Assembly (NCBI GenBank): GCA_030591565.1
Contig: JAUVAU010000006.1
Location: 1 to 64,000 of the forward strand
Length of the DNA stretch: 64,000 bases
From: Deltaproteobacteria bacterium
Lineage (GTDB): Bacteria; Desulfobacterota; Deferrisomatia; Deferrisomatales; BM512
Direction: 5' to 3'
The notes under the pieces were generated by a model that did not search any database, had not been told where the DNA came from, and saw nothing but the letters and a program-made list of their open reading frames with translations. The translations under genes were made by a program, and so were the position numbers. This document shows positions 6,741-61,806 of this stretch, in pieces (within the stretch, counting starts at the first letter, position 1; each line of letters starts with the position of its first letter).

Positions 6741-6972
6741 ACTGAGGCTTTTGAAAAACTCTCCTGAAGCGGAGAATAACGCCAAACCGGAGATTCTGGC
6801 TGATGTTGGACGAACCTCTAACTAAGCCGATGATAAACTGGAAGCCCCGAAGATCCTTCGAGAAGTAGGAAGGGAAGAAAAATGACCGCAGGCATACTGA
6901 TAGGTATTTCGAGGATCATTTTTCGCCCCTGACAACGTCAATCGGAGGATATCCGGGGGTTTTCAACAAGAT
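6741..6972 (-). repeat. Dispersed intergenic element, subfamily B (copy B1)
   Basis: Contains AAAAATGACCGCAGGCATACTGATAGGTATTTCGAGGATCATTTTTCGCCCCTGACAACGTCAATCGGAGGATATCC, shared with copies at 13.5, 33.9, 42.3 and 46.6 kb. Confidence 0.92.
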
Positions 6973-6996
6973 TTAAAAACCGTGAGGAATTGAAAG

Positions 6997-7440
6997 ATGG
7001 CCCAACAGGCAGTAACCCAACAGGATTTTGAACCCCGCATAGTGGCGTTTCTCTGCCACTGGTGCACCTACACCGGCGCGGACCTGGCGGGCACCACCCG
7101 TCAGCAGTATCCGCCCAACATCCGGGTTGTGCATCTCATGTGCTCGGGCGCGATTGATGTGGTCTACGTGCTGAAGGCGCTGATGGACGGCGCCGACGCG
7201 GTGCTCATAGGCGGCTGCCATCCCGGCGATTGCCACTACCAGTCGGGCAACTACAAGGCGCGCCGCCGCGTGGCGATCCTCAGGAATATCCTCACCCAGT
7301 TTGGCGTGAGCCAGGACCGGGTTTGGCTCAAATGGATCAGCGCCAGCGAGGGCAGGCTCTTCGCCGAGACAATAAACGAAATGACCGACGCCGTACGCGA
7401 GATGGGCCCGGTGGAGTTCAAGCTGGGTTGGGACGTTTAA
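6997..7440 (+). CDS. mvhD: MvhD-like (F420-non-reducing hydrogenase delta / methyl-viologen-reducing hydrogenase delta) 2Fe-2S subunit
   Basis: FLCHWCTYTGADLAGTTR, LMCSGAIDVVYVLKAL..GADAVLIGGCHPGDCHYQSGNYKARRR. Confidence 0.93.
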   Translation: MAQQAVTQQDFEPRIVAFLCHWCTYTGADLAGTTRQQYPPNIRVVHLMCSGAIDVVYVLKALMDGADAVLIGGCHPGDCHYQSGNYKARRRVAILRNILTQFGVSQDRVWLKWISASEGRLFAETINEMTDAVREMGPVEFKLGWDV

Positions 7441-7447
7441 AGGGATA

Positions 7448-8593
7448 ATGACGATGAAAACAGCACTATTGCAAACCAACGGCGATCCCAACGGGGCGCT
7501 CTCCGCCTTTTTGGCCGGAATGATTGAGAAGGGCATCGTTGATGAAGTGATGGCCCCCGCCGCGCAGCCGGGCGGCTCGGCGTCGATGGCGGTCTTTGCC
7601 GACGTGACAGAAATGGACGCGATAATCCCCTGGGCGCCGGTGATGCCGGTCCAGGGTGCGCGTCTTCTGAGCCGCTTGAGCTTCGACGACCCGGGAATGA
7701 AGGTGGCGGTGGTACTTCGCCCCTGCGAAGCGCGTGCGGCCATCGAGTTGATCAAGCTCAAGCAGATACTGCCCGACAATATCACCTTCGTCACCATCGA
7801 CTGCCCCGGAACCTGTGAGCTAAAGGGTTTTGAGGAGTCGGGACTGGAGATGAAGACCGAATCAAACCGCATGGTGGACCAGATGGAAGCGGGCGCAGCC
7901 ACGGCTGCTGATGGTGTTGGCCTTCGCACCGCATGTACCATCTGTGTGAACTCCAGCGCCCATTGGGGCGACGTTCAACTCCATGTCTATGGGACCAAGG
8001 GTTCCCAGTCCGTCGCCATCGCGGCAAGCGACGAGCTTGCCGATGCGCTGGCCGGGGCTGCGTTGGTGACTTTCGACGCCGAGCCGCTTTCGGGACGCGA
8101 TGCGGTTGTGGAAGGTGTCAACAAGGGCCGCGAAGCAGCGCGTGAAAAGGTCTTCGCCGAGATGACCGAGGACGCCCAGAGTCTTGAAGGCTTGAAAAAA
8201 CGCTTCTCCACCTGCATCCGCTGCCTTAACTGCATGGAGAACTGCCCGATATGCTATTGCAAGCAGTGCATCTTCAAGTCCACCACCTTCGATCACCCCG
8301 GCAGCTCCTACGCCAAGTGGGCGATGCGCAAGGGGGTGCAGAAGATGCCCTCGGAAACCATGCTCTTCCATCTGACCAGGCTCAATCATATGGCTACCTC
8401 CTGCATCGGCTGCGGGCTGTGCGATACCGCGTGTCCCATGGGCCTTCCCGTAGCGTCGCTCTTTTCCAAGGTGGCCAACGGGGTCCAGGGGATGCTCGAC
8501 TACAAGGCGGGGGCGAGTCTTGAAGACCCGATCCCGCTCAGTGTCTTCAGAGAAGATGAGCTTCAGGAGGAATCCGGGGCCGAGGACTTCTGA
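7448..8593 (+). CDS. FrhB/FdhB-like coenzyme F420 hydrogenase/dehydrogenase beta-family Fe-S protein
   Basis: LRPCEARAAIELIKLKQ, CPGTC, CIRCLNCMENCPICYCKQCIF, CIGCGLCDTACP. Confidence 0.78.
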   Translation: MTMKTALLQTNGDPNGALSAFLAGMIEKGIVDEVMAPAAQPGGSASMAVFADVTEMDAIIPWAPVMPVQGARLLSRLSFDDPGMKVAVVLRPCEARAAIELIKLKQILPDNITFVTIDCPGTCELKGFEESGLEMKTESNRMVDQMEAGAATAADGVGLRTACTICVNSSAHWGDVQLHVYGTKGSQSVAIAASDELADALAGAALVTFDAEPLSGRDAVVEGVNKGREAAREKVFAEMTEDAQSLEGLKKRFSTCIRCLNCMENCPICYCKQCIFKSTTFDHPGSSYAKWAMRKGVQKMPSETMLFHLTRLNHMATSCIGCGLCDTACPMGLPVASLFSKVANGVQGMLDYKAGASLEDPIPLSVFREDELQEESGAEDF

Positions 8594-8645
8594 TAAGCAT
8601 CCAGTGTAATTTGCGGCCGTGGAAGGCCGAGGAGGATATTTAAAG

Positions 8646-9410
8646 ATGAGTACCCAGACGATCGCCAGTGGTGACACAACGATCCTGCCCGAGGGCGCAA
8701 AATTCATTCCAGTCTATGTGATGGGCAAGAAGTACATGCTGCCCGAGACCCTGACGATCCAGAAGGCGATCGAATACGCCGGGTTTCAGTATGTGCGCTC
8801 CTGCGGCTGCCGTGGCGGCATCTGTGGCGCGTGCCCGACGGTGTGGCGTGTGATAGGCGACTACCAGCTCCATTTCGGGCTGGCCTGTCAGACAGTGATC
8901 GAAGAGAACATGGTCCTGGCGCAGATGCCCTTCTTCCCGGCCAACCGCGCTGACTACAAACTCGAAGAGCTTGAGGCCACCGCCGAGACGTTGAGCCTGC
9001 TCTACCCCGAGATTTTGAAGTGCGTGGGCTGCAACACCTGCACCAGAGCCTGCCCCATGGAGATCGACGTGATGGGGTATATCAACTCTGCGATGAGGGG
9101 CGACATTACCCGCGCCGCCCGCCAGTCCTTCGACTGCATCCAGTGCGGCATGTGCTCGGCGCGTTGCCCTGCCCAAATAGCCCACTACCACGTGGCGCAG
9201 CTCTGCCGCAGGCTTTACGGAAAATACGTGGCCCCCGGAGCCGAGCATCTGGTATCCCGCGTTTCCGAGGTCGAAGCGGGTAAATACGAAGGCGCGCTTG
9301 AAGCGCTCACCGGGATGGATGAGCCAAAACTCAAAGAGCTTTATGTGGCCCGCGAGGCGGAACCCCTTGATTCCGAAGGGTGGGAACCCCAGGACAAGGC
9401 AAACCTCTAG
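8646..9410 (+). CDS. Fumarate reductase/succinate dehydrogenase-type iron-sulfur subunit (2Fe-2S plus 4Fe-4S)
   Basis: SCGCRGGICGACP, CVGCNTCTRACPMEID, CIQCGMCSARCPAQI. Confidence 0.8.
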   Translation: MSTQTIASGDTTILPEGAKFIPVYVMGKKYMLPETLTIQKAIEYAGFQYVRSCGCRGGICGACPTVWRVIGDYQLHFGLACQTVIEENMVLAQMPFFPANRADYKLEELEATAETLSLLYPEILKCVGCNTCTRACPMEIDVMGYINSAMRGDITRAARQSFDCIQCGMCSARCPAQIAHYHVAQLCRRLYGKYVAPGAEHLVSRVSEVEAGKYEGALEALTGMDEPKLKELYVAREAEPLDSEGWEPQDKANL

Positions 9411-9443
9411 GGCATACGGAAATAGAAAAGGGAGCTTAAGAAA

Positions 9444-11120
9444 ATGGGATACACGCCCGAAATGATGGAACTCATCAAGCGCGTTGAAGCAACCCGCGCT
9501 GCCCGCGTCGAGCGCGTCAAGAATGGTGAATATTTCACCGCGATGACCCTTGATGAACGCGCCGACGTGCTCAATAAATTTCACCCCGACTACAAGGACG
9601 ATGGCCGTGTGGCGGTCAGGGTCGGCCCCAACAAGGGCGACGTCTACCCCGAAGAGTTCGTGGCTTGCCTTGAGTCCTATCCCCGCATCGACCCCGACAA
9701 GGTGGACTTCAGTGTGCTGGAGACCTTCACCACCGATGTGCTGGTCATCGGCGGCGGCGGCGGCGGGACCTCGGCTGCAATCATTGCGGCCAATGAGGGC
9801 AACAAGGTCATCCTCGCCACCAAGCTTCGCCACGGCGACGCCAATACGGTAATGGCCGAGGGGGGTATACAGGGCGCGGATCAGGAAGTTGACAGCCCCT
9901 ACTACCACTACCTCGACGTCATCGGCGGCGGTCATTTCACCAACAGCCCCGAGCTGGTGGCGGCGCTGACCAATGACGCGCCGCTGGTCATTAAGTGGCT
10001 CGAAGATATGGGCATGATGTTCGACAAGAACCCCGATGGCCGTATGCGTGTGCGCCACGGCGGCGGCACCTGCCGCAAGCGGATGCACTCGGCGGGCGAC
10101 ATGACCGGCTCCGAGATCATGCGCGTGCTTCGCGACGAGGCGAGAAGCCACACCGATTCCATAGAGCTGATAGAGTTCGCCGCAGCCGTTGAGATTCTCA
10201 AGGACTCACAGGGCCGCGTGAGCGGAGCGCTGATGTACAACCTGGAGACTGAAGAGTACTTCACCATTCGCGCCAAGGCGGTTGTCATCGCCACCGGCGG
10301 TTTCGGCAGGCTCCACGTCCAGGGTTTCGCTACAACCAACCACTACGGCGCCACCGCCGACGGCCTGGTGCTCGGCTACCGCGCAGGCGTACCGCTGGCA
10401 TTCATGCACTCCACCCAGTATCACCCCACCGGCGCGGCCTACCCGGAACAAAACGTTGGCCTGCTCATCACCGAAAAGGTGCGGGGACTGGGCGCGAACC
10501 TGCTTAACATCAGCGGAGAGCAGTTCGTCTTCGAGCGTGAACCCCGCGATGTTGAGTCCGCCGCGATCATCCGCGAGTGCGCCGAGCGTGAAAACGGCAT
10601 CCAGACCCCGGTGGGACGCCTTGGCGTCTGGCTCGACTCTCCGATGATCGAAGAGCTGGAAGGCCCCGGCACCGTGGAGCGGGAGCTGCCCGCCAAGTTC
10701 GTGCAGTTCATGCGCTACGGCATCGACATCCGCGAAGTCCCCATGCTCGTCTACCCGACCCTGCATTATCAAAATGGTGGACTCAAGATCAACGCCAAGA
10801 CCGAGACCGGCGTACCCGGCCTCTTCGCCGCTGGCGAGGTCACCGGCGGCGTCCACGGCGAAAACCGCCTCATGGGCAACTCCTTACTTGATGTCACCGT
10901 CTTCGGTCGCCGCGCTGGTCAATCGGCTGCCCAATATGTGAGTGACTTTAGTGGAGAGATCGGCGAGCCGGGACTGGCTCATGCCAAGGAGTTCATGGAA
11001 GAGGTCAAAGGACTAAACGTTCCCGAGGACCGGGTGGCCCCCCTGCTGTTGCCCGATTACACCACCGAAGAGGTGCGCAGCCACCAGCTCACGGCCCACT
11101 ACGAGGGCACGATCAGGTAG
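9444..11120 (+). CDS. Fumarate reductase/succinate dehydrogenase flavoprotein subunit-like
   Basis: VLVIGGGGGGTSAAIIA, HSTQYHPTG, GLFAAGEVTGGVHGENRLMGNSLLD. Confidence 0.88.
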   Translation: MGYTPEMMELIKRVEATRAARVERVKNGEYFTAMTLDERADVLNKFHPDYKDDGRVAVRVGPNKGDVYPEEFVACLESYPRIDPDKVDFSVLETFTTDVLVIGGGGGGTSAAIIAANEGNKVILATKLRHGDANTVMAEGGIQGADQEVDSPYYHYLDVIGGGHFTNSPELVAALTNDAPLVIKWLEDMGMMFDKNPDGRMRVRHGGGTCRKRMHSAGDMTGSEIMRVLRDEARSHTDSIELIEFAAAVEILKDSQGRVSGALMYNLETEEYFTIRAKAVVIATGGFGRLHVQGFATTNHYGATADGLVLGYRAGVPLAFMHSTQYHPTGAAYPEQNVGLLITEKVRGLGANLLNISGEQFVFEREPRDVESAAIIRECAERENGIQTPVGRLGVWLDSPMIEELEGPGTVERELPAKFVQFMRYGIDIREVPMLVYPTLHYQNGGLKINAKTETGVPGLFAAGEVTGGVHGENRLMGNSLLDVTVFGRRAGQSAAQYVSDFSGEIGEPGLAHAKEFMEEVKGLNVPEDRVAPLLLPDYTTEEVRSHQLTAHYEGTIR

Positions 11121-12489: not shown

Positions 12490-13359
12490 ATGAGCATTCT
12501 TGTCAATAAAAACACACGGCTGATCTGCCAGGGGATTACCGGCGGCAATGGTAAATTCCACTCAGAGCAGTGCCAGGCCTATGGCACCAACCTCGTCGGC
12601 GGCGTCACCCCCGGTAAGGGCGGCTCCGAAGTTTTGGGCGTTCCCGTATTCGATACCGTGGACGAAGCGGTGAAGCAAGCCGGCGCCGACGCCTCCATGA
12701 TCTTTGTCCCGGCCCCCTTTGCGGGCGACGCGATAATGGAAGCAGCCGACGCAGGGATTAAAGTGATCGTCTGCATCACCGAGGGCATCCCCGCGTTGGA
12801 TATGGTCAAGGTGAAGAGGGCGCTCAGCGGCCGCGACGTGCATCTGGTCGGCCCCAACTGCCCCGGCGTCATCACCCCCGAGGAGTGCAAGGCTGGCATC
12901 ATGCCCGGTCACATCCACAAAAAGGGTCCGGTGGGCGTCATCTCCCGCTCCGGCACGCTGACCTACGAGGCGGTTGACCAGCTGACCAAGTTGGGCATCG
13001 GCCAGACCACCTGCCTCGGCATCGGTGGCGACCCGATCATAGGCACCACCTTTATTGATGCGCTCAGCCTCTTCAAGGATGACCCCGAGACCGAAGGCAT
13101 CATAATGATCGGCGAGATTGGCGGGTCTGCGGAAGAGGAAGCGGCGGCCTACATCCAGGCGAATATCGAAGTCCCGGTGGTCTCCTTCATCGCGGGACAG
13201 ACCGCACCCAAGGGCAAGCGCATGGGTCACGCCGGTGCTATAATCGCGGGCGGCAAGGGCACTGCGGCTGAGAAGATGGCGGCGCTGGAAGCCGCCGGAG
13301 TCACCGTGGTCAAGAGTCCGGCTGATCTGGGCAAGGCGATGGCTGAAAGACTCAGCTAG
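12490..13359 (+). CDS. sucD: Succinyl-CoA synthetase alpha subunit
   Basis: [51 protein letters not shown]. Confidence 0.97.
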
Positions 13360-13361
13360 GC

Positions 13362-13503
13362 GACAAAGGCTGTCTTTTCTCCGATTGACTTCGTCAGGCT
13401 AAGAAATGATCCTCGAAATACGACAAGTATTCCTCCGGTCATTTCTTATCACCTTCCTGATTCTCGAAGAAAATCCAGCCCTTGTCAGCAATCAGTCAGG
13501 CTG
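13362..13503 (+). repeat. Dispersed intergenic element, subfamily A (copy A1, right end missing)
   Basis: GTCTTTTCTCCGATTGACTTCGTCAGGCTAAGAAATGATCCTCGAAATACGACAAGTATTCCTCCGGTCATTTCTTATC, shared with 18.9, 38.8 and 61.6 kb. Confidence 0.93.
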
Positions 13504-13744
13504 TTGGCAAAGGCTGACATTTTCCCCGATTGACGTTGTCAGGGGCGAAAAATGATCCTCGAAATACTTATCGGTATGCCTGCGGTCATTTTTCTTCCCT
13601 TCCTCGTTCTCGAAGGATCTTCGGGGTTTCCGGTTTATCGTCGGCTTAGCTGGAGGTTTGCCCAACATCGGCTAAAATCTCCGGTTTAGCCCTGTTTAGT
13701 GTTGCCCCCCGCTTCGGGAGAGTTTTTCGGAGAGCCTCCTAGAC
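13504..13744 (+). repeat. Dispersed intergenic element (copy B2; A-type left end, B-type remainder)
   Basis: Left end TTGGCAAAGGCTGACATTTTCCCCGATTG resembles subfamily A; downstream GGGGCGAAAAATGATCC...CCGCTTCGGGAGAGTTTTTCGGAGAGCCTCCTAG matches subfamily B. Confidence 0.9.
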
Positions 13745-13812: not shown

Positions 13813-14652
13813 TCAGGCAGGCGGGAAGAGGTCGCCAGTCCAGTTGGCCAGCTCCGGTTCAATCGCCCTCTGTCGGGCCAATAGCTCGCGCACTGCGCGC
13901 TCACCTTCTTCGCCGATATCCTCGCTGAACTCGTTGACGTAGAGGCCGATATGGCTCTCGATCACCTCCTCGTCAAGCTCCTGGGCGTGTTCGCGCACCC
14001 AGGCGGTTGCCTCTGCCGGGTTCTCCTTGGCGAAGCGGAGACTTTCTCGCATGATTGACTGGATGAGGGCCGGGTCCACCCCTTCCAGCTCTCGCTTCAA
14101 TACTATGCACCCCAGTGGAATGGGCAGCCCGGTTTCCCGCTCCCACCACTGCCCCAGGTCCTCGATCTTCGTTAGTCCCTTGTCAGCATAGGTGAAGCGG
14201 CCTTCGTGGATGATGATGCCGGAAGGTACCTCGCCGCTTGTCACCGCCTCCATTATGTCGCTGAAAAGCATGGAAACGCCGTCAAAATCGTCCCCAAGCC
14301 TCAGCTTGGTCAGCAGGTATGCGGTTGTGTTGACTCCGGGGTGGGCGATGGGGGAGCGCGCCAATTGCGCCGCTCCTGTATTTCCTCTCGCAACCCAGAG
14401 CGGGCCGCACCCGCGCCCCAACGCCCCGCCGGTGCGCAGACACCAGTAGTCGGGCAACAGCTTGCCCAGCACGCCGTAGCTGACCTTGGTCAGCTCCAAC
14501 TCTGAACCCAGCGCCATGCGGTTCAGCTCTTCCACATCGGCCATTACCGGCTCGAATTTGTAGCCGTGGGTGTCGATGAGGCCGTGCACCATCGCGTGGA
14601 ACTGGATCGTATCGTTTGGGCAGGGAGAGAAGCCGAATCTGATTGTCTTCAT
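13813..14652 (-). CDS. mqnD: 1,4-dihydroxy-6-naphthoate synthase (futalosine menaquinone pathway)
   Basis: FGFSPCPNDTIQFHAMVHG, VSYGVLGKLL, PLGCIVLKREL. Confidence 0.92.
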   Translation of the reverse strand: MKTIRFGFSPCPNDTIQFHAMVHGLIDTHGYKFEPVMADVEELNRMALGSELELTKVSYGVLGKLLPDYWCLRTGGALGRGCGPLWVARGNTGAAQLARSPIAHPGVNTTAYLLTKLRLGDDFDGVSMLFSDIMEAVTSGEVPSGIIIHEGRFTYADKGLTKIEDLGQWWERETGLPIPLGCIVLKRELEGVDPALIQSIMRESLRFAKENPAEATAWVREHAQELDEEVIESHIGLYVNEFSEDIGEEGERAVRELLARQRAIEPELANWTGDLFPPA

Positions 14653-14681
14653 AGCAAATTATGATCCGGGGGCTGCTTGGG

Positions 14682-15437
14682 TCAGGAGGTCAACGTGGCA
14701 AGAAAGGCCTTGGCAGCCTGTCCCGCAAGCTCAATCGCTTCGGGGATCTTCCATTTTTCCTTGTCCCGAGGCCCGACCATGTTGGAGATCGCCCGGACCT
14801 CGACGAATTTGGAGCCGCTATAAAGTGCCGCACGTGCAGCACCAGCGCCCTCCATGTTTTCGCAGATCGCGCTGTAGTTGGCGGCGATCCTCTCAGCTCT
14901 TTCCTGGGAGGAGGTCACCATCGCCGAGGTCACGAAAGCCCCTTTTCTGCAGTTGGCCAGGGTTTTGCAGGATTCAAGGAGAAGCTCGGTTGTTTCGCGG
15001 TCGGCGGCAAAAAGGTTTTCGGCGCTACCCGGTGAGGTGGGTACCCCTATGGAACCGGGAGGTCCGCCGGGTAACTTCGGCTCTGTTCCGGTGTCATGGT
15101 CGATCTCCACGGTAGCCACCGCAAGGTCGCCGATCTGGAGTGCCGAGCCAGGATACGCGCCGCCTATGCCGACGTTCAAAATCAACTCGGGCCTGCCAAA
15201 AGCCAGGGCGCGCCCTATTGCCAGCGCGGTGTTGGCGGGGCCGGGGCCGGTGACCACGAAGAGCGTGTCGCCAGCTTCCAGAATCAGGGGGAAGTCGGGT
15301 TTCAGTCCGGGGGGAGGGTCCACCCACCCAAGCTCCTGGGAGGTGGCTGCGACGACCATTACCTTTGGGCCAGCCTTTTTTTCAGGCCTTAAAAGGCTCT
15401 GCCAGATAACATTGCCGTCGGTCCCGGTGTCAGTCAT
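14682..15437 (-). CDS. mqnB: Futalosine hydrolase
   Basis: Nucleoside phosphorylase-like GIGGAYPGSALQIGDLAVA, CENMEGAGAARAAL, EVRAISNMVGPRD; neighbour of mqnD. Confidence 0.9.
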   Translation of the reverse strand: MTDTGTDGNVIWQSLLRPEKKAGPKVMVVAATSQELGWVDPPPGLKPDFPLILEAGDTLFVVTGPGPANTALAIGRALAFGRPELILNVGIGGAYPGSALQIGDLAVATVEIDHDTGTEPKLPGGPPGSIGVPTSPGSAENLFAADRETTELLLESCKTLANCRKGAFVTSAMVTSSQERAERIAANYSAICENMEGAGAARAALYSGSKFVEVRAISNMVGPRDKEKWKIPEAIELAGQAAKAFLATLTS

Positions 15438-17068: not shown

Positions 17069-17118
17069 TCTGTTACGCGTTTGAATTTACATTGAGATAT
17101 GCCGATTTTGGAGGTGCT

Positions 17119-18792
17119 ATGCCAAAACGTTTACTTATAGTCGAGTCCGATGACAGCCTGACTTCGGTGGCCTACGGATTCCTCGACGAAGCCCAATGGA
17201 CCATAGAGACCAAGGCGGAGCCGCATAAGGTTCTTGAAGAGATCGGAGACGACCCCCCCGATGTTCTGATCTGCGCCGCCGATCTTGGTTTGTCCACGGG
17301 TTACGATCTCGCCAACAAGCTGCGCGACATCACCGGCCTGAAAAAGTTCCCGATCATCTTGGCCGCTTCGCAGCCCGATAATGAGTTGTTGTCGATAATC
17401 TCCGAGGCGTATCCCCTGATGGTCCCCTTCGACTCGGCGCAGTTGAGCGAAGTGCTCGCCAAGAGCGATGGTGGGGGAGCAGCGGCCAAGGTCTCGGACG
17501 ACCCCACTGCCTTTAGCGATGCCGATTTCGATTCCGCGTTCCATGGGATAATAGTCAAGCCCGAGCCGGCCCCGGTCGAGGAACCCACCCCGGAGCCCTC
17601 TCCCGAGCTTTCCTTCCCGCCCCGGCCAGAGGTGGTGGAAGGGGAGGAAGAAGCAGAAATTGGTGAGTTGGACCAGGTGGAGGAACCTGGAGAGGTCGAG
17701 CTTGAGCTAGAAGAGGGTGAGCCTGTCGAGCTAGAGGAGCTTGAGGGAGAGGCTGTTGATGTTGAAGAGGTTGGGGACGATGGGGTTTACGATCTCCAGG
17801 ACGATGATGTGGCCGGAACTTTTGAATCCGAAGAGGACCAGGAGCTGGAGATCTTCGACACCGATGAGGATCTTGAAGGGGAGATTTACGAGTTCGAGGA
17901 GCATATAGAGGAAGACGAGAATTTATCCGAGCTTGAGCTGGTGGCAAAAACATCTACCGAAGAGGAGGGGTTGGCCCCCTCCGGCGAAGAGGATGAATTT
18001 GAGCTAGAAGCCACCGCCTTTGATAGCGGCGGTGAAGCGCCGGAAATGGAAGAGCTAGAGCTTGAGTCGCTGGCGATGGTCCCGCCTGTTGCTGTCGAAG
18101 AAGAGCAACCTTCAGAAGCTGAGGTGGCTGAGGAAGTGGTTGTCGAGCAAGTCGAAGACGATGATGACTTCGATTTCGATGACCACGAAGAGGAGGCAGG
18201 CGAAGTGTCTCCTGCCCCCGTTGAAGAGGCGCAGGATTTCGACTTTGACGACCATGAGGAAGATATCGCCCCTGCACCTTTGGCGACCGGGTCCGCAGCA
18301 AAGGATCAGGAGTTCAATTTCGACGAGCACGAAGATGAGGTGGCTGTTGTCGCCGCCGGTGGGCTCGCGACGGAAGGGGTGGAGCACGATTTCGATTTCG
18401 ACGACCATGAGGATGAGCCGGCGGCGGCTACATTGGAAACTGTCCTCGCGGGTGAAGGGGTTTTCGATTTTGGTGGTCACGAAGATGACTTTGCAGAGGC
18501 AGCTGTTGAGGCTGTCATCGCGGATAATGATGATTTCGACTTTGACGATTACGAAGACGAGATGACCGAAATAGCGGCGCTGACCGCTTCGGATAGTCTG
18601 GATATCAGCACCAAGGCGGAGCAGGCCAGCCGTGAGGCGGTTGAAAAGCTTGTGGGCGAGGTGGTCAATGCCGAGCAGCTCCAAAAAGTAGTCCAGGCAG
18701 CGGTGGAAAAGGTTGTGTGGGATACCGTGCCCGCTCTGGCCGAGAAGATGATCGCGGAGGCGATAGAGAAATTGAAGGAGCCTCCCAAGTAG
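17119..18792 (+). CDS. Response-regulator receiver-like protein with long acidic repeat region and C-terminal amphipathic segment
   Basis: N-terminal KRLLIVESDDSLTSVAYGFLDEAQW receiver-like fold; six imperfect FDFDDHEDE-type repeats; C-terminal VEKVVWDTVPALAEKMIAEAIEKL. Confidence 0.75.
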   Translation: MPKRLLIVESDDSLTSVAYGFLDEAQWTIETKAEPHKVLEEIGDDPPDVLICAADLGLSTGYDLANKLRDITGLKKFPIILAASQPDNELLSIISEAYPLMVPFDSAQLSEVLAKSDGGGAAAKVSDDPTAFSDADFDSAFHGIIVKPEPAPVEEPTPEPSPELSFPPRPEVVEGEEEAEIGELDQVEEPGEVELELEEGEPVELEELEGEAVDVEEVGDDGVYDLQDDDVAGTFESEEDQELEIFDTDEDLEGEIYEFEEHIEEDENLSELELVAKTSTEEEGLAPSGEEDEFELEATAFDSGGEAPEMEELELESLAMVPPVAVEEEQPSEAEVAEEVVVEQVEDDDDFDFDDHEEEAGEVSPAPVEEAQDFDFDDHEEDIAPAPLATGSAAKDQEFNFDEHEDEVAVVAAGGLATEGVEHDFDFDDHEDEPAAATLETVLAGEGVFDFGGHEDDFAEAAVEAVIADNDDFDFDDYEDEMTEIAALTASDSLDISTKAEQASREAVEKLVGEVVNAEQLQKVVQAAVEKVVWDTVPALAEKMIAEAIEKLKEPPK

Positions 18793-18870: not shown

Positions 18871-19100
18871 TCAGATTGCTGGCAAAGCCTGTCTTTTCTC
18901 CGATTGACTTCGTCAGGCTAAGAAATGATCCTCGAAATACGACAAGTATTCCTCCAGTCATTTCTTGTCACCTTCCTGGTTCTCGAAGAAAATCCAGCCC
19001 TTGTCAGCAATCAGTCAGGCTGGGCAAGTAGATAAATAGACAGTTGCGAGTAGACAATCTTCCAGCCACCCTCCTTTTGTCTACCTTTGTCAACAGCCTC
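18871..19100 (+). repeat. Dispersed intergenic element, subfamily A (copy A2)
   Basis: TCAGATTGCTGGCAAAG...CTTTGTCAACAGCCTC ends; core shared with A1/A3/A4; flanked on both sides by ATGTACGGAT-containing hairpins. Confidence 0.92.
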
Positions 19101-23878: not shown

Positions 23879-24766
23879 TTGAATGGAATGGTTTTTTTGA
23901 TGAATCAGGCAAGAACCGGCAGGCTCTCCGAGCTGCTTGAGATGATAAAGTTCTCCCATACCATCTTCGCGTTGCCCTTCGCGTTGACGGGGATGGTTCT
24001 GGCTGCTGATGGGCTGCCCCCGTTAAGGGTGATCGTCTGGGTTGTCGTCGCCATGGTTGGGGCCCGTACCGCGGGCATGACCTGGAACAGGATCGCCGAC
24101 AGGGATATCGACGCCAAAAACCCCCGGACGGCTGATCGTCACCTCGCTACCGGCAGGGTGGCGATGGGTGAGGCGTGGTACCTTGCCGCGGGTGGTGTGG
24201 CGCTCTTGATGCTGGCGGCGTGGATGCTCAATCCTCTTTGCCTCAAACTCGCGCCCGTGGCGTTATTCGCACTTTTTATCTATCCCTATACCAAGCGTTA
24301 TACCGATCTTTGCCACTATATCCTCGGGGTCTGTCTCGCGGCAGCCCCCCTTGGTGCGTGGATAGCTGTGACCGGCCAGTGGAGCTGGAATGTCCTGCCC
24401 CTGGCCCTCGCGGTGGTGATCTGGGTCGCCGGTTTCGACATCCTCTACGCGCTGAACGACCTGGAGTTCGACAGGTCTGAAAATATCCACAGCCTGCCCC
24501 GAAAGCTGGGGGTGGGGCGCTCACTAAAACTGGCCCAACGCCTTCACGTGGCCATGCTGCTCCTGCTCTTGTCACTGGTCCCGCTCATGGGGCTGGGGTG
24601 GATATACATTCTTGGACTGGTCGCAGTGGCCGCGCTGCTCTTCTATGAGCATTCGCTGGTCACTCCCTCCGACCTCTCCCGGCTGGATGCGGCTTTCTTC
24701 ACCATGAACGGTGTCATCAGCGTGGTCGTCTTCTTCGCGACCCTGCTCGACATTTGGTTTGCCTGA
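23879..24766 (+). CDS. mqnP: UbiA-family prenyltransferase, putative menaquinone (futalosine pathway) prenyltransferase
   Basis: MIKFSHTIFALPFALTGM, RTAGMTWNRIADRDIDAKNPRTADR; adjacent to mqnE/mqnC. Confidence 0.9.
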   Translation: MNGMVFLMNQARTGRLSELLEMIKFSHTIFALPFALTGMVLAADGLPPLRVIVWVVVAMVGARTAGMTWNRIADRDIDAKNPRTADRHLATGRVAMGEAWYLAAGGVALLMLAAWMLNPLCLKLAPVALFALFIYPYTKRYTDLCHYILGVCLAAAPLGAWIAVTGQWSWNVLPLALAVVIWVAGFDILYALNDLEFDRSENIHSLPRKLGVGRSLKLAQRLHVAMLLLLLSLVPLMGLGWIYILGLVAVAALLFYEHSLVTPSDLSRLDAAFFTMNGVISVVVFFATLLDIWFA

Positions 24767-24767
24767 T

Positions 24768-25838
24768 ATGAATGACATCAGAGCGAAGATAGAGCAGGGC
24801 CAGCGTATCAGCGAGGCCGACGCGGTCAACCTTTTTGAGACCGACGATCTGTTGCTACTGGGTGAGTTGGCGTCCCTGGCGAATCGCAGGGTGAATGGCG
24901 ACAAGGTCTACTTCAATGTCAACCGGCACATCAACCCCACCAACATCTGCGTGAACCGCTGTAAGTTCTGCGCTTTTAGCCGAAGCGAGAATGAAGAGGG
25001 CGCTTATGAGATGGATTCCGACGAGGTCTTTAGCCAGGCTCAAAAGGCCCATGCTGACGGTGCGCATGAGATTCATATCGTTGGCGGGTTGCACCCAACC
25101 CTCTCCCTTGAGTGGTACGAAGAGGTGATTGCGCGGATCAAGGACGCGATGCCCGGGATGCACGTCAAGGGCTTTACGGCGGTGGAGATAGACCACTTCG
25201 CCAACATCTCCGGCAACTCCATCGAGGAAGTGCTCAGGGGGTTGAAGGCAGCCGGATTGGGGTCGATGCCCGGCGGTGGAGCGGAAATTCTGGCCGAGGA
25301 GACGAGGCTGAAGATCTGCCCCGAAAAGATCAGCGGGAAAGCCTGGCTGGAGATCATGCGCACCGCCCACTCCATAGGGCTGAAATCCAACGCCACTATA
25401 CTATACGGCCATGTCGAGAGCTATGGTGACCGGGTAGAGCATATGAGGCTCTTGCGTGAGCTGCAGGACGAGACCGGCGGCTTCCAGGTCTTCATCCCCC
25501 TGGCGTTTCAACCGAAACACTCGGAACTGGCCTCGGGCAGCCCCACCACCGGTTTTGATGACCTGAAGACCCTCGCCGTGGCGCGGCTCTATCTGGACAA
25601 CTTCAAACACATCAAGGGCTACTGGATCATGCTGGGTGAAAAGATCGCCCAGGTGAGTCTCCACTTTGGTGTCAACGACCTGGATGGCACCGTCTCCCAG
25701 GAGAAGATCGCCCACGACGCCGGAGCCGAGAGCAGCGAAAAGATGAGCCGCGAGGACTTGGTGTCCCTCATCAAAGAGGCGGACAAAATTCCGGTGGAGA
25801 GGGATTCGCTCTACAATGAGCTGGAGGTCTGTTCCTGA
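24768..25838 (+). CDS. mqnE: Aminodeoxyfutalosine synthase, radical SAM
   Basis: INPTNICVNRCKFCAFSRSE, VGGLHPTLSLEWYEEVI, GLGSMPGGGAEI. Confidence 0.95.
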   Translation: MNDIRAKIEQGQRISEADAVNLFETDDLLLLGELASLANRRVNGDKVYFNVNRHINPTNICVNRCKFCAFSRSENEEGAYEMDSDEVFSQAQKAHADGAHEIHIVGGLHPTLSLEWYEEVIARIKDAMPGMHVKGFTAVEIDHFANISGNSIEEVLRGLKAAGLGSMPGGGAEILAEETRLKICPEKISGKAWLEIMRTAHSIGLKSNATILYGHVESYGDRVEHMRLLRELQDETGGFQVFIPLAFQPKHSELASGSPTTGFDDLKTLAVARLYLDNFKHIKGYWIMLGEKIAQVSLHFGVNDLDGTVSQEKIAHDAGAESSEKMSREDLVSLIKEADKIPVERDSLYNELEVCS

Positions 25839-26887
25839 TGGCCGGTCGCATCGACAGGGGCGAAGCGCTCCGACTGCTGCGCGGTGAGGAGTTCCTGGCG
25901 CTTGGCCGACACGCCGACGCTGTTCGCATCGGGAAGCACCCCGACAACGTCGTGACCTTCGTGGTTGACCGCAACATCAACTACTCCAACATCTGCACCT
26001 GCCAGTGCCGTTTCTGCGCCTTCTACCGCGCCCCCGGTGACCCGGAAGGGTACGTATTAAAGTTTGAAGAGATGTTCGCGAAGATAAGGGAACTGGAAGA
26101 GCATGGGGGCACCCAGGTACTGATGCAGGGGGGGCTTCACCCCGAGCTGGATATCGAGTGGTTTGAAGACCTATTCACCCAGATAAGGTCGCGCTTTCCC
26201 CGCATAAGGCTGCACAGCCTCTCGCCTGCTGAGGTGGACCAGATCGCCAAAGTATCCGGTCTCACTATGGAAGAGACGCTTGGGCGCCTGAAGGCTGCGG
26301 GGTTGGGTTCGATCCCCGGCGGCGGCGCCGAGGTGCTGGTGGACCGCGTGCGCGAAGAGATAAGCCCCAACAAGATCGGCTGGCGTAAATGGGCCGAGGT
26401 GATGGAGTGCGCGCAAAAGCTGGGCATGGGCACCACCGCCACGATGATGTTCGGGGCGGGGGAGAGTGACGAGGAGATAGTGGAGCACCTCTTCAGGGTG
26501 CGCGAACTCCAGGACCGCACCGGCGGGTTCACCGCGTTCATCCCCTGGACCTTCCAGCCCACCCACACCGAGCTTGGCAAACAGCTGGGGAGTCGAGGCA
26601 CAGGCGCGGTGAGCTACCTGCGAGTCCTGGCGCTAAGCCGCATTGTCTTGGACAACATCGACAACGTCCAGGCCTCCTGGGTGACACAGGGCGACAAGGT
26701 GGCGCAGGTCGCGTTGCGCTTCGGGGCCAACGATATGGGCTCCACCATGCTGGAGGAAAACGTGGTCGCGGCCGCCGGGGTGAGTTTCAGGATCGACAAG
26801 GAGCGGGTAGTGTCCCTCATAAAAGACGCTGGCTTCAACCCGGCGCAACGAGCCACCGACTACGCAATCATAAAAAGTTTTGACTGA
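25838..26887 (+). CDS. mqnC: Cyclic dehypoxanthinyl futalosine synthase, radical SAM
   Basis: INYSNICTCQCRFCAFYR, QGGLHPELDIEWFEDLF, GLGSIPGGGAEVLVDRVR, ATMMFGAGES. Confidence 0.95.
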   Translation: MAGRIDRGEALRLLRGEEFLALGRHADAVRIGKHPDNVVTFVVDRNINYSNICTCQCRFCAFYRAPGDPEGYVLKFEEMFAKIRELEEHGGTQVLMQGGLHPELDIEWFEDLFTQIRSRFPRIRLHSLSPAEVDQIAKVSGLTMEETLGRLKAAGLGSIPGGGAEVLVDRVREEISPNKIGWRKWAEVMECAQKLGMGTTATMMFGAGESDEEIVEHLFRVRELQDRTGGFTAFIPWTFQPTHTELGKQLGSRGTGAVSYLRVLALSRIVLDNIDNVQASWVTQGDKVAQVALRFGANDMGSTMLEENVVAAAGVSFRIDKERVVSLIKDAGFNPAQRATDYAIIKSFD

Positions 26888-32449: not shown

Positions 32450-32680
32450 CAGGCTGCTGACAAAGTCAAGAAGGGGCAATTCTCAAAGGAATTGCCCCTT
32501 CTCTCGTTTAATCCGGCAAACCCCGGCTCAGCCTGACAGATCGCTGTAAACTTTGAATTTTATTCGAGAACAAGGAAGCCTCAAAAAATGACCGCAGGCA
32601 TACTGACAGGTATTTCGAGGATCATTTTTTCAGGCTGACACCGTCAATCGGATAAAAGGCGGAGTTTATCAGCGATCTGA
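32450..32680 (-). repeat. Dispersed intergenic element, A/B hybrid (copy A5), inserted between duplicated terminator hairpins
   Basis: Reverse complement has the element core AAAAAATGATCCTCGAAATACCTGTCAGTATGCCTGCGGTCATTTTTT and the inner AAGGGGCAATTC...GAATTGCCCCTT hairpin also in the 61.6 kb copy. Confidence 0.92.
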
Positions 32681-33828: not shown

Positions 33829-33870
33829 AAGCTACTCCATTCTTAAAGGGGAAGAATTTCCACTACCCAG

Positions 33871-34105
33871 TAGTTTGTTGAAAAACCCCGGATATCCTCC
33901 GATTGACGTTGTCAGGGGCGAAAAATGATCCTCGAAATACCTATCAGTATGCCTGCGGTCATTTTTAGCCCCTTCCTAGTTCTCGAAGGATCTTCGGGGT
34001 TTCCAGTTTATCGTGGCTTAGTTAGAGGTTTGCCCGACATCGGCTAAAATCTCCGATTTAGCGTTACGCTCCCGCTTCGGGAGAGTTTTTCGGAGAGCCG
34101 CCTAT
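33871..34105 (+). repeat. Dispersed intergenic element, subfamily B (copy B3)
   Basis: TTGTTGAAAAACCCCGGATATCCTCCGATTGACGTTGTCAGGGGCGAAAAATGATCC...GCTTCGGGAGAGTTTTTCGGAGAGCCGCC. Confidence 0.93.
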
Positions 34106-38752: not shown

Positions 38753-38763
38753 GTTGGTTGAGT

Positions 38764-38985
38764 AGATCGCTGGCAAAGCCTGTCTTTTCTCCGATTGACT
38801 TCGTCAGGCTAAGAAATGATCCTCGAAATACGACAAGTATTCCTCCGGTTATTTCTTATCACCTTCCTTGTTCTCGAAGAAAATCCAGCCCTTGTCAGCA
38901 ATCAGCCAGGCTGGGTAAGTAGACAGACAATTGCAAGTAGACAATTTTCCAGCCAACTTCCTTTTGTCTGCCTTTGTCAACAGCT
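38764..38985 (+). repeat. Dispersed intergenic element, subfamily A (copy A3)
   Basis: AGATCGCTGGCAAAGCCTGTC...CCTTTGTCAACAGC ends; right half matches A2. Confidence 0.93.
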
Positions 38986-38993
38986 TGGCGTCT

Positions 38994-40536: not shown

Positions 40537-42264
40537 ATGGTTCGACTTACCTTGCACCAGATGAACCCCACCGTGGGCGACATTGAGGGCAATACCGAAA
40601 AGATATTGCAGGGGATAGCAGCCGCCCGGGAGGTCGGAGCGCAGCTGGTGATCTTCCCCGAATGCGCCGTGACCGGCTATCCGGCAGAGGACCTGCTCTT
40701 CGTAGGCTCCTTCATCGATGAGAATACCAAGGCTATTCAAAGAATTGCCGAGGCCACCAGGGGGCTTGTGGCGCTTGTGGGCTTTGTCCACCGTGACGAC
40801 GACATCTACAACGCGGCGGCCATTCTTGCCGACGGCGAGATAAAGGGAGTGGTCAAAAAGTCGATCCTGCCCAACTACGGCGTCTTTGACGAGAATCGCT
40901 ACTTTCAGAGCGCCGAGTGTCCGGTGGTGTTGAAGATGGGGGAGGCCAGGGTCGGCGTCACCATCTGCGAGGACCTCTGGCACGCCAATGGTCCGGCGCG
41001 GGAGCAGTCGCTCTTTGGCGGGGCCGAGCTTATAGTCAACATCTCCGCCTCTCCCTACCACCGGGGCAAACCGGCGCGGCGCGAGGCCATGCTTGCCACC
41101 AGGGCCACCGATTACGGTGTATACGTCGCCTTCTGCAACATGGTTGGGGGTCAGGACGAACTGGTCTTCGACGGCAACTCCGCAGTATTCACCCCGGCGG
41201 GCGAGGTCATCACCAGGGCCGTGCCCTTTGAAGAGCATATGATAGTTGCCGACGTGGACCTCTCCCAGGCGCTTGACCAGCGGCTGAAGGAACCCCGGCG
41301 GCGCGCGGCGAGGGATATGGAACCTGAGGGGCAGCGCACACTTCAATTCGTTGAGGTGCCCTTGTACGACAATGTAAAGCCACCCATAGCCACACACACC
41401 ACAACCGAACCGGACGAACTGGAAGAGATATACAGAGCGCTGACGCTCGGCTGCTCCGATTACGTGGGGAAAAACGACTTCAATAAGGCGGTGCTTGGGC
41501 TCAGCGGCGGTATCGACTCGGCGCTGACCGCTGCGATAGCGGTGGATGCGCTGGGGGCCGGGAATGTGGTGGGCGTCACCATGCCCTCGAAGTATTCCAG
41601 CGAAGGCAGCGTTGACGACAGCGTGGAGCTTGCCCGAAACCTTGGGGTTGAGATACACAACATCCCCATCGGCGACCCCTTCGATGCCTACATCCAGTCG
41701 CTCGCACCCCTTTTCGCGGGGCTTGAGATGGACGTGGCGGAGGAAAACCTCCAGGCGCGGATCAGGGGCACGCTCTTGATGGCGCTCTCCAATAAATTTG
41801 GCTGGCTGCTGCTCAGCACCGGCAACAAGAGCGAAACCTCAGTGGGCTACTGCACCCTCTACGGCGACATGGCGGGGGGGTTCAACCTGCTAAAGGACGT
41901 CCCCAAGACCCTCGTCTATGAGCTGTGCCACTGGCGAAACGGACAGACACGCCGCCCCTGGATACCCACCTCCATAATCGAGAAGCCACCCAGCGCGGAG
42001 CTTCGGCCCGACCAGAAGGATTCGGACTCACTGCCGCCATATGCGGTGCTGGACCCGATCCTCAAGGTCCTGGTGGAAGACGATGGGGCGCTTGACGGGG
42101 TTAGGGAGCTCTATGGCGAGGAGACCGTTTCGCGGATCGTAGCGCTGGTGGACAGGAACGAATACAAGCGCCGCCAGGCGGCGCCGGGGGTCAGGATTAC
42201 GCCCAGGGCGTTTGGCAAAGACAGGCGTTATCCCATAACCAACCGCTACAAGCGGCCGGTTTAG
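40537..42264 (+). CDS. nadE: Glutamine-dependent NAD+ synthetase
   Basis: Nitrilase domain FPECAVTGYPAEDLL, GVTICEDLW; synthetase LGLSGGIDSALTAAIA, KSETSVGYCTLYGDMAGG. Confidence 0.96.
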   Translation: MVRLTLHQMNPTVGDIEGNTEKILQGIAAAREVGAQLVIFPECAVTGYPAEDLLFVGSFIDENTKAIQRIAEATRGLVALVGFVHRDDDIYNAAAILADGEIKGVVKKSILPNYGVFDENRYFQSAECPVVLKMGEARVGVTICEDLWHANGPAREQSLFGGAELIVNISASPYHRGKPARREAMLATRATDYGVYVAFCNMVGGQDELVFDGNSAVFTPAGEVITRAVPFEEHMIVADVDLSQALDQRLKEPRRRAARDMEPEGQRTLQFVEVPLYDNVKPPIATHTTTEPDELEEIYRALTLGCSDYVGKNDFNKAVLGLSGGIDSALTAAIAVDALGAGNVVGVTMPSKYSSEGSVDDSVELARNLGVEIHNIPIGDPFDAYIQSLAPLFAGLEMDVAEENLQARIRGTLLMALSNKFGWLLLSTGNKSETSVGYCTLYGDMAGGFNLLKDVPKTLVYELCHWRNGQTRRPWIPTSIIEKPPSAELRPDQKDSDSLPPYAVLDPILKVLVEDDGALDGVRELYGEETVSRIVALVDRNEYKRRQAAPGVRITPRAFGKDRRYPITNRYKRPV

Positions 42265-42500
42265 GAGCTTCGTCGAAAAACCCAGGATATCCTCCGATTG
42301 ACGTTGTCAGGGGCGAAAAATGATCCTCGAAATACTTTTTGGTATGCCTGCGGCCATTTTTCTTCCCTTCCTACTCCTCGAAGAATCTTCTGGGTTTCCT
42401 GTTTATCGTCGGCTTGGTGGGAGGTTTGCCCGGATCGGCTAAAATCTCCGGTTTAGTGTTAACCCCCCGCTTCGGGAGAGTTTTTTGGGGAGCCTCCTGG
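42263..42500 (+). repeat. Dispersed intergenic element, subfamily B (copy B4), abutting the nadE stop codon
   Basis: TAGGAGCTTCGTCGAAAAACCCAGGATATCC...GGGAGAGTTTTTTGGGGAGCCTCC. Confidence 0.93.
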
Positions 42501-42610
42501 AGCTTCGTCGAAAAACCCAGGATATCCTCCGATTGACGTTGTCAGGGGCGAAAAATGATCCTCGAAATACCTGTCAGTATGCCTCCGGTCATTTTTCTTC
42601 CCTTCCCGGT
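42497..42610 (+). repeat. Dispersed intergenic element, subfamily B (copy B5), 3'-truncated, tandem with B4
   Basis: GGAGCTTCGTCGAAAAACCCAGGATATCCTCCGATTGACGTTGTCAGGGGCGAAAAATGATCCTCGAAATAC repeats the B4 left half. Confidence 0.92.
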
Positions 42611-42702
42611 TCCGTGCCGCGAGCGATTTTTCTTTTGTGCTGCTTGACAAAGTTGCTATGCTCCAAACTCTCTTTTAGTAAGCATTCTTCCCAACGGTGC
42701 AG

Positions 42703-45631: not shown

Positions 45632-46558
45632 ATGGAATTCCAGAGTACAGTCGGGCGCGACGTGGTTCTAAAAGGCATCGGGCTTCATAACGGTGAACAG
45701 ACCACCCTTTGTATAAAGGCTGCCGGCCCCGGATCAGGCATATGTTTTCGCCGTGTGGACCTCGATCCCGTGGTTGATATAGCCGCGAAGGTTGAAAATG
45801 TGGTCGATACCTCCCTGGCCACGGTGCTGGGGTGCCAGGGCGCCACCATCTCCACAGTCGAGCACTGCCTCGCGGCGCTCTACGGCATGGGCATCGATAA
45901 CGCGGTGGTGGAAGTGGATGGTCCCGAGGTGCCGATTCTGGACGGAAGCTCGACCCAATATGTGGAGAAACTGAAAAAAGCAGGCGTGAAAAAGCAGAAC
46001 GCACCGCGAAAGGTGCTCAAAGTTTTAAAACCGATCAGAGTGGAGCAGGGCGACAAGTTCTCCATCCTGCGCCCCTCGCCTGATTTCAGGGTCACCTATT
46101 CGATCGATTTCGCCGAAGGCTTCCCCGGCGAGCAGCACTATATGTTGAAGATTTCACCCTCCAGCTTCGCCAGACAGTTGAGTCGTGCTCGCACCTTCGG
46201 CTTCGTACGCGACGTTGAGATGCTCAGATCAATCGGAAAAGCCCGTGGCGCGTCAATGTCCAATGCGGTGGCCCTTGACGGCGGCCGGGTGCTCAACCCC
46301 GAAGGTCTGAGGATGCCAGACGAAATGGTTCGTCACAAGATGCTGGACGCCGTTGGCGATCTGGCGCTGGCGGGTGTCCCGGTCCAGGGACATTTGATCG
46401 TCCACAAGGGTGGACATGAACTGCACCGCCTGTTGGTGGCGGCCCTTGTTTCACGCCCCGACGCCTGGAAAATGATTGACGCCCCCTCAAAGGTACGCCA
46501 GTTTTCCTTTGGCGGGCACGTCGTGGAGCTGGGAAAAGTGGCGGCGCTACACGCCTAG
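45632..46558 (+). CDS. lpxC: UDP-3-O-acyl-N-acetylglucosamine deacetylase
   Basis: GRDVVLKGIGLHNGEQTTL, ISTVEHCLAALYGMGIDN, MPDEMVRHKMLDAVGDLALAG, GHLIVHKGGHELHRLLVAAL. Confidence 0.97.
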   Translation: MEFQSTVGRDVVLKGIGLHNGEQTTLCIKAAGPGSGICFRRVDLDPVVDIAAKVENVVDTSLATVLGCQGATISTVEHCLAALYGMGIDNAVVEVDGPEVPILDGSSTQYVEKLKKAGVKKQNAPRKVLKVLKPIRVEQGDKFSILRPSPDFRVTYSIDFAEGFPGEQHYMLKISPSSFARQLSRARTFGFVRDVEMLRSIGKARGASMSNAVALDGGRVLNPEGLRMPDEMVRHKMLDAVGDLALAGVPVQGHLIVHKGGHELHRLLVAALVSRPDAWKMIDAPSKVRQFSFGGHVVELGKVAALHA

Positions 46559-46714
46559 GAGGTTCTCCGATAAACTGGAAGCCCCGAAGATCATTCGAGG
46601 GGTAGGAAGGGAAGAAAAATGACCGCAGGCATACCAATAAGTATTTCGAGGATCATTTTTCGCCCCTGACAACGTCAATCGGAGGATATCCGGGGTTTTT
46701 CAACAAACTCCTAG
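46555..46714 (-). repeat. Dispersed intergenic element, subfamily B (copy B6, internally shortened), abutting lpxC stop codon
   Basis: CTAGGAGGTTCTCCGATAAACTGGAAGCCCCGAAGATC...TCGGAGGATATCCGGGGTTTTTCAACAAACTCCTAG. Confidence 0.92.
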
Positions 46715-49638: not shown

Positions 49639-49641
49639 CAG

Positions 49642-58839: not shown

Positions 58840-58847
58840 TCAGCCGT

Positions 58848-58874
58848 GGGGATGCATTGGCCATCCCCGTTTTC
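58848..58874 (+). terminator. Hairpin between rpsO and pnp
   Basis: GGGGATGCATTGGCCATCCCCGTTTT. Confidence 0.6.
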
Positions 58875-58923
58875 AATCACAACGAAGATGATTAGCTAAC
58901 CTCATTTAGCGAGGAGTTTGTAC

Positions 58924-61041: not shown

Positions 61042-61069
61042 GCAAGCGCCCTGTAAGTGAATAACTCCA

Positions 61070-61107
61070 AACGCGCAGTCTGCTTTTAAAGTGGCTGCGC
61101 GTTTTTT
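61070..61107 (+). terminator. Terminator after pnp
   Basis: AACGCGCAG...CTGCGCGTTTTTTG. Confidence 0.8.
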
Positions 61108-61128
61108 GTTTTGCGAGAGGTGAATCAA

Positions 61129-61569
61129 ATGGCTCTGAAGATAGGAGTGAAGAAGCTTCCCGGAACTGAGGACTTGGCGCTGCCTTCATACCAGACCAAC
61201 CACAGCGCCGGTATGGATATCGTCTCGGCCCAGAGTGTGGAGATTGCCCCCGGCGAGCGCACCATGATTTCCACGGGCCTCACAGTGGCGATCCCGGATG
61301 GCTTTGAGGCGCAGATAAGGCCCCGGAGCGGTTTGGCGGTCAAACATGGCATAACGCTGGTGAATACGCCGGGGACAATCGATGCCGACTACCGGGGCGA
61401 GATACGCATAATAATGATCAACCACGGTGATGAGGTGTTCGCGGTGAAAAGGGGTGAGCGGATCGCCCAGATGATTATCGCGCCGGTTACCCGTTGCAAC
61501 TGGGAGCTGATGGACGAACTCCCCGAATCGGGAAGGGGCGAGGGCGGTTTCGGTTCCACTGGCCGCTGA
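61129..61569 (+). CDS. dut: dUTPase
   Basis: AGMDIVSA, PRSGLAVKHGITLVNTPGTIDADYRGEIRIIMINHG, ERIAQMII, GRGEGGFGSTG. Confidence 0.97.
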   Translation: MALKIGVKKLPGTEDLALPSYQTNHSAGMDIVSAQSVEIAPGERTMISTGLTVAIPDGFEAQIRPRSGLAVKHGITLVNTPGTIDADYRGEIRIIMINHGDEVFAVKRGERIAQMIIAPVTRCNWELMDELPESGRGEGGFGSTGR

Positions 61570-61576
61570 GTCTTTT

Positions 61577-61806
61577 TCAGATCGCTGACAAAGCCCGTCT
61601 TTTCTCCGATTGACTTCGTCAGGCTAAGAAATGATCCTCGAAATACGATAAGTATTCCTCCGGTCATTTCTTATCACCTTCCTCGTTCTCGAAAAAAATC
61701 CAACCCTTGTCAGCAATCAGTCCGGCTGAGCCAGGGTTTGCCGGATTCAACGAGAGAAGGGGCGATTCCTTTAAGAATTGCCCCTTCTTGACTTTGTCAA
61801 CAGCCT
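61577..61806 (+). repeat. Dispersed intergenic element, subfamily A (copy A4)
   Basis: CAGATCGCTGACAAAG...CTTTGTCAACAGCCT terminal inverted repeats; right half with AAGGGGCGATTCCTTTAAGAATTGCCCCTT shared with the 32.5 kb copy. Confidence 0.93.

What the first reader, a model, noticed from the sequence alone, without database searches (positions are those of the whole stretch)
6741..61806. Modular dispersed intergenic element: at least 11 copies in 64 kb, two interlinked subfamilies
Subfamily A (13362, 18871, 38764, 61577, and 32450 on minus) and B (6741 minus, 13504, 33871, 42263, 42497, 46555 minus) share TCCGATTGAC..GTCAGG, a hairpin core AAATGATCCTCGAAATAC...AGTATnCCTnCGGTCATTT, and a downstream CTTCC..TTCTCGAAG box, but differ in outer arms. 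Full-length A copies are about 222-231 bp and B copies about 235-240 bp. Ends form imperfect terminal inverted repeats (A: CAGATCGCTGACAAAG / CTTTGTCAACAGCCTG; B: CTAGGAG..GAAAAACYC / GAGTTTTTCGGAGAGCCTCCTAG). All copies are intergenic, none carries a convincing ORF, and no transposase is in the window. It resembles a MITE or REP-like family, but I do not recognise it.
Basis: seen in the sequence. Interest (0 to 1): 0.85.

Follow-up and report, generated by a model that had tools for sequence, protein, structure and literature searches.

The report
Structured hairpin transposon of sulfate-reducer genomes
The window holds eleven copies of a roughly 142-base hairpin-forming piece of mobile DNA that carries no gene, is scattered through the genomes of many sulfate-reducing bacteria and their relatives, and keeps the same folded core while its ends and its way of inserting differ between lineages.

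Summary
In detail: 11 copies (core seen 11 times, 0.16 expected), all recovered by a covariance model (E 1e-9 to 4e-23). The genome has 150 exact cores in 2.49 Mb, and the same core lies in many Desulfobacterota assemblies. The unit is a 142±2-nt imperfect palindrome; window A and B copies are that hairpin plus lineage-specific 3' extensions. It is mobile: palindromic ends are flanked by target-site duplications, exactly 4 nt in 32/39 copies of one assembly, 5 nt in about half of the GAGACC-ended copies, each against about 1 expected. One copy sits inside another with the target sequence duplicated. Duplication length follows the end sequence, while core and total length stay constant. 42 of 57 base pairs show changes on both sides. 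There is no Rfam, viral or plasmid match, and no transposase with matching ends was found. Best reading: a MITE-type non-autonomous element moved in trans by unidentified DDE transposases, with an unusually conserved single-strand fold. What the fold does is inferred, not shown.

The parts
6744..6973 (-). B copy, full length; hairpin 6831-6968. Lies between an HdrA-like gene (ends 6736) and an FlpD gene (starts 6997)
   Evidence: (E 1.1e-14)
13354..13496 (+). A hairpin (13355-13493) without its 3' module, fused to the next copy
   Evidence: E 2.1e-20
13497..13742 (+). B body with an A-like left end (chimera); model match 13523-13617
   Evidence: E 1.9e-12
18872..19100 (+). A copy; hairpin 18873-19013; flanked on both sides by parts of a terminator palindrome (ATGTACGGAT)
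   Evidence: E 5.7e-21
32450..32679 (-). A copy; hairpin 32538-32678; flanked on both sides by a near-identical ~26-nt terminator palindrome (AGGGAGGCTCTTTT(T)AAAAGCCTCCCT)
   Evidence: E 3.8e-23
33869..34104 (+). B copy; hairpin 33872-34013; terminator-like CTCCCGCTTCGGGAG-AGTTTTT in its 3' module (34069-34083)
   Evidence: E 6e-17
38763..38987 (+). A copy; hairpin 38764-38904
   Evidence: E 1.6e-21
42264..42498 (+). B copy; hairpin 42271-42408; head-to-tail with the next copy
   Evidence: E 4.7e-15
42499..42612 (+). B copy, 3' truncated; model match 42534-42612
   Evidence: E 1.4e-9
46555..46713 (-). B copy, short form; hairpin 46568-46709
   Evidence: E 7.9e-15
61578..61807 (+). A copy; hairpin 61579-61719; internal palindrome AGAAGGGGCGATTCC...GGAATTGCCCCTTCT-type as in the 32450 copy
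   Evidence: E 3.8e-22

Best explanation
A non-autonomous transposable element of the MITE type. The unit is a ~142-nt imperfect palindrome whose outer arms are the terminal inverted repeats. Transposases supplied in trans, most likely DDE enzymes of more than one lineage, cut at the ends and insert the unit with a staggered cut, leaving a duplication whose length depends on the end sequence of that lineage (4, 5, probably 6 or TA; CTAR for window B; a terminator palindrome for some window A copies). Between the ends lies a conserved fold: an apical helix GGAAUAC/GUAUUUC with an invariant G-U pair, a GSA/GA internal loop with a bulged A, a mid-helix of about 10 pairs and two conserved boxes. 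It is kept on one strand, so it acts as RNA or single-stranded DNA; I infer, and have not shown, that it aids the element's own spread (for instance by presenting a hairpin to a transposase or host protein) rather than serving each neighbouring gene. Copies persist where they do little harm, past stop codons and between convergent genes. In this genome the hairpin has gained 3' modules with terminator-like hairpins. Shown: copies, fold, covariation, duplications, placement. Inferred: the enzymes, the role of the fold.
For: Duplications: 4 nt in 32 of 39 copies of G395, control mean 1.55, maximum 5 in 500 shuffles, and 21 of 29 in further loci; 5 nt in 24 of 49 GAGACC-ended copies, control 0.57, 15 of 32 against 0.50 in a stricter set; CTAR for own B copies. 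Nested copy in L183 with ACTCT duplicated. Constant unit length 142. Fold: 42 of 57 pairs with changes on both sides, 386 cells against 143 shuffled, no shuffle reaches any measure; complement strand more stable in 113 of 123. Patchy distribution with bursts. Placement: convergent 19 of 39, divergent 3 of 39.
Against: No transposase with matching ends was found: PF01609 and PF05598 are absent from this genome, and their hits elsewhere lack these ends; no autonomous element in about 0.8 Mb of G395. A typical MITE has one duplication length and no conserved inside. Core-less copies with duplications exist, which speaks against a need for the core.
Confidence: 0.7

Rival explanations
1. The conserved fold is itself the mobile principle: a structured RNA or single-stranded DNA recognised by one dedicated, unidentified enzyme that inserts it. 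The terminal repeats are only the base of the hairpin, free to change as long as they pair.
For: Core and 142-nt length are constant while ends diverge with pairing kept; strand-specific G-U pairs; no IS with matching ends in several carriers.
Against: Duplication length is fixed within an end class and differs between classes, which fits DDE transposases reading the ends; 45-, 71- and 78-nt copies without the core also show duplications, unless these are later internal deletions.
Confidence: 0.15
2. A regulatory or transcription-terminating RNA that serves host genes and spreads because it is useful.
For: Enriched between convergent genes and rare between divergent ones; terminator-like hairpins in own B copies; stable RNA fold.
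Against: Random orientation in tandem genes, 9 against 8; patchy presence even between near relatives; placement is also what insertion plus selection against harm would give.
Confidence: 0.08
3. A large REP family moved by a RAYT (Y1) transposase.
For: Palindromic, high copy, intergenic; the genome has one short REP-transposase-like gene.
Against: That gene is a 112-aa fragment below the family cut-off with no copies around it; the units leave duplications; no GTAG or CGTC tag stands out; 142 nt instead of 20-40.
Confidence: 0.03

Closest known systems
ERIC/IRU (127 nt) and Correia/NEMIS elements of enterobacteria and Neisseria (review PMC2229807)
   Same: Size, intergenic placement, terminal inverted repeats, target-site duplications, long stem-loop RNA, no transposase known for ERIC
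   Different: No sequence relation found here (no Rfam, plasmid or phage-contig match); this family spans a phylum, has a covarying strand-specific core, and several duplication lengths
RUP of Streptococcus pneumoniae (107 nt; PMC2229807)
   Same: Non-autonomous, high copy, terminal repeats, TA at the insertion site as in our GAAGC-ended class
   Different: RUP shares its ends with IS630-Spn1; no such partner was found here
GTAG/CGTC REP families (PMC3733652)
   Same: High-copy, extragenic, palindromic; G-T pairs in stems taken as a sign of transcription
   Different: 20-40 nt, tetranucleotide tag, RAYT association for GTAG; our units are 142 nt with target-site duplications
IS1202 family (PMC10132070), as a possible type of mobiliser
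   Same: One IS family with subgroups of 3-5 and 16-28 nt duplications, like the spread of lengths seen here
   Different: No IS1202-type transposase or end was looked for or found in the carrier genomes; only an analogy

Membership tests
Bacterial MITE (general kind) | short (<500 bp), no coding capacity | tested here: met
   Unit 142±2 nt; A and B 155-246 nt; no ORF of note. Some G295 copies reach 603 nt by nested hairpins
Bacterial MITE (general kind) | terminal inverted repeats | tested here: met
Bacterial MITE (general kind) | target-site duplication | tested here: met
   32 of 39 with 4 nt, control 1.55; 5-nt class; nested copy
Bacterial MITE (general kind) | ends shared with an autonomous IS | tested here: inconclusive
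   None found, but only PF01609 and PF05598 in a few genomes and part of G395 were covered
REP / RAYT system | 20-40-nt palindrome with GTAG or CGTC tag | tested here: not met
   142-nt unit; no such tag stands out in the alignment
REP / RAYT system | Y1 (RAYT) gene flanked by the repeats | tested here: not met
   single 112-aa fragment, no copy within its 3.3-kb locus
Known Rfam RNA family | match at gathering score | tested here: not met
   0 in the window; only far-below-threshold plant miRNA hairpins in other loci
ERIC / Correia / RUP | sequence homology to the family consensus | not tested
   No direct alignment to those consensi was made; hosts and core sequence differ
IS1202-mobilised element | IS1202-type transposase in the carrier genome | not tested

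The most novel reading that the evidence does not exclude
A phylum-wide class of selfish structured nucleic acid in which the conserved internal fold, not the terminal sequence, is what is selected: the unit keeps one 142-nt architecture while adapting its ends to different transposases (duplications from 2 to about 30 nt), or is moved by one unknown enzyme that reads the fold.
Probability: 0.3. Interest if true: 0.85.

Novelty: new variant of a known kind. Interest (0 to 1): 0.62.

Why it matters
Bacterial MITEs are normally read as decayed leftovers of one IS, with nothing inside worth conserving. This family keeps a strand-specific, covarying core across a phylum while its ends and duplication length change. 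That makes testable whether a transposon's internal RNA or single-strand fold is needed for its spread, and how such an element changes hosts and mobilising enzymes. With up to hundreds of copies per genome it also fragments short-read assemblies of environmental sulfate reducers (contigs end inside copies).

Tried and rejected
Rfam at gathering and permissive thresholds: nothing. REP/RAYT: rejected. IS4/IS5/IS1182-type mobiliser through PF01609 and PF05598: none with matching ends. An IS4-type element beside a copy in G295 (L244) looks like a later insertion into that copy's end, with its own ends CAATGTCATTAACTTAA. A GAGACCTTTG site near a transposase fragment (L246) was not an IS end. End-pair search for an autonomous element in about 0.8 Mb of G395: none. 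Viral contigs: 0 of 2.9 million; plasmids: 0. Counting G-T against A-C in the arms gave only a modest bias (55 against 101); the energy comparison is much clearer. Literature: no paper found that describes this family in Desulfobacterota (the library lacks most subscription papers and all preprints). The whole genome was not available as a file, so the census rests on pattern counts plus 449 kb scanned with the model.

Full report
Observation. The 17-nt core occurs 11 times against 0.16 expected, and a covariance model finds exactly those 11 and nothing else, E 3.8e-23 to 1.4e-9. The genome (2.49 Mb, 104 contigs, 91% complete) has 150 exact core hits with a reversed control of 0. The model finds 36 distinct copies in 449 kb, which extrapolates to about 200. 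Several contigs end inside copies, so some copies are lost.

Anatomy. Comparison with other genomes shows that the basic unit is a 142±2-nt imperfect palindrome: terminal repeat, box 1 (about CCSATCTCKGCGTTGGG), mid-arm, TCCTCGAAATAC-N-GTATTCCTSCGG, mid-arm', box 2 (about CCGCCTTGACCTTGAACC), terminal repeat'. The related genome G003 carries the simple hairpin with closely similar ends. In G295 copies grow from 143 to 603 nt by extra hairpins placed at a few recurring loop positions.

Fold. On 43 diverse elements, 82.7% of the cells of a 57-pair structure are standard pairs, 42 pairs show changes on both sides in 386 cells (shuffled mean 143), and no shuffle reaches any measure; sliding the partner by one column drops pairing to 51-53%. 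The structure was voted from folds of the same sequences, which favours it somewhat, but the gap is large. The strand that folds is the complement of the quoted core: it is more stable in 113 of 123 elements, by 11.3 kcal/mol on average with RNA parameters and 3.8 with DNA parameters. Conserved A-C mismatches on one strand are G-U pairs on the other; one is invariant in 43 of 43. Caution: template switching in quasi-palindromes can make arms covary without selection. It would not by itself explain conserved asymmetric loops and wobble pairs.

Mobility. Copies are flanked by direct repeats whose length depends on the end class. G395 (ends GAGCCAGTTTC): exactly 4 nt in 32 of 39, control mean 1.55, maximum 5, and 21 of 29 in further loci. 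GAGACC-ended copies: 5 nt in 24 of 49, control 0.57, and 15 of 32 against 0.50 in a stricter set. B copies of this genome: 4 nt, mostly CTAG or CTAA (z about 2-3 per position, so weaker). GTGCC-ended copies: 6 nt in some (3 of 8 in the stricter set), weak. GAAGC-ended copies: TA on both sides, not separable from a conserved end. Some A copies lie between two copies of a terminator palindrome: 8 of 26 composites tested have a strong direct match between flanks against 0.02 expected, e.g. around 32450-32679 and at L176. In L183 one copy sits in the apical loop of another with ACTCT duplicated. Staggered-cut transposition is the natural reading.

Distribution and placement. Exact cores occur in 2 of the 12 genomes of the order (which is also the whole class held) and, with a stricter pattern, in 13 of 394 of the phylum, with bursts (G295 44, G205 11; G395 has about 600 end sequences). 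Three loci of a Sandaracinaceae MAG fit the model (E about 1e-10 to 1e-12), and one of an Oscillospiraceae MAG weakly (7e-6); wrong binning cannot be excluded. None was found in 2.9 million viral contigs. In this genome 19 of 39 core sites lie between convergent genes and only 3 between divergent ones (background 53 and 49 of 196; p 0.012 and 0.019), and orientation among tandem genes is random (9 against 8). Gene calls there were simple ORF picks. No transposase is in the window.

Mechanism. The evidence supports a MITE-type element mobilised in trans. The mobiliser was not found, though only two Pfam families and part of the genomes were covered. One IS family, IS1202, has subgroups with 3-5 and 16-28 nt duplications (PMC10132070): a lead that was not tested. 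What the conserved fold does is inferred. Since ends change while core and length do not, the core probably contributes to spread; against this, 45-, 71- and 78-nt copies without the core exist in G395, with duplications, though they may be later internal deletions.

Comparison. ERIC, Correia/NEMIS and RUP share size, intergenic placement, terminal repeats and duplications (PMC2229807); prokaryotic MITEs in general are taken to derive from IS elements and to be moved by them (PMC10969869). No paper in the library describes this family. It meets the tested features of a MITE, but not the features of a REP. I rate it a new variant of a known kind: the conserved strand-specific core over a phylum and the change of duplication length between homologous units are the unusual parts.

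Noticed in passing
L221-L235 (G295): Copies carry further short hairpins nested at recurring loop positions (e.g. CCTCCGGCCCGTAAGGCCTACGCCCCGGAGG; CCTGCCTGTGCCGGGCCTATCTGCCGTTCC...), apparently separate mobile palindromes or expansion segments.
   Followed up: partly
L046, L073, L090, L128 (G395/KR11), L141 (CSMAG_410), L059 (CSMAG_340): Some copies carry, in an arm, an insert such as GCACTTTAGTGAAGCTTTAGCGCTA (165-166-nt copies), which looks like another small nested repeat.
   Followed up: no
L244 (G295:C62): A PF01609 transposase element with ends CAATGTCATTAACTTAA sits exactly at the end of a hairpin copy, with GATGGRCACT on both sides.
   Followed up: partly
window 6736-6997: A B copy separates an HdrA-like FAD/iron-sulfur gene from an FlpD (methyl-viologen hydrogenase delta) gene within what looks like one Qmo/Hdr-type operon; its effect on expression would be a natural test case.
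   Followed up: no
window 17092-18792: 566-aa protein with a weak response-regulator match and tandem acidic repeats (about 36-nt DNA unit, DFDFDDHEE-like) in its C-terminal part.
   Followed up: no
window 13813-15437 and 23879-26887: Genes resembling futalosine-pathway menaquinone synthesis (VitK2_biosynth, phosphorylase, UbiA, two CofH/MqnC-type radical SAM proteins) in two clusters.
   Followed up: no
L104, L143, L149 (Sandaracinaceae MAG Chersky_785): Related hairpins with ends AGAGCTGTCCAGAAAT in a MAG outside Desulfobacterota, possibly with 3-nt TNA duplications (TGA, TGA, TTA); binning not checked.
   Followed up: partly
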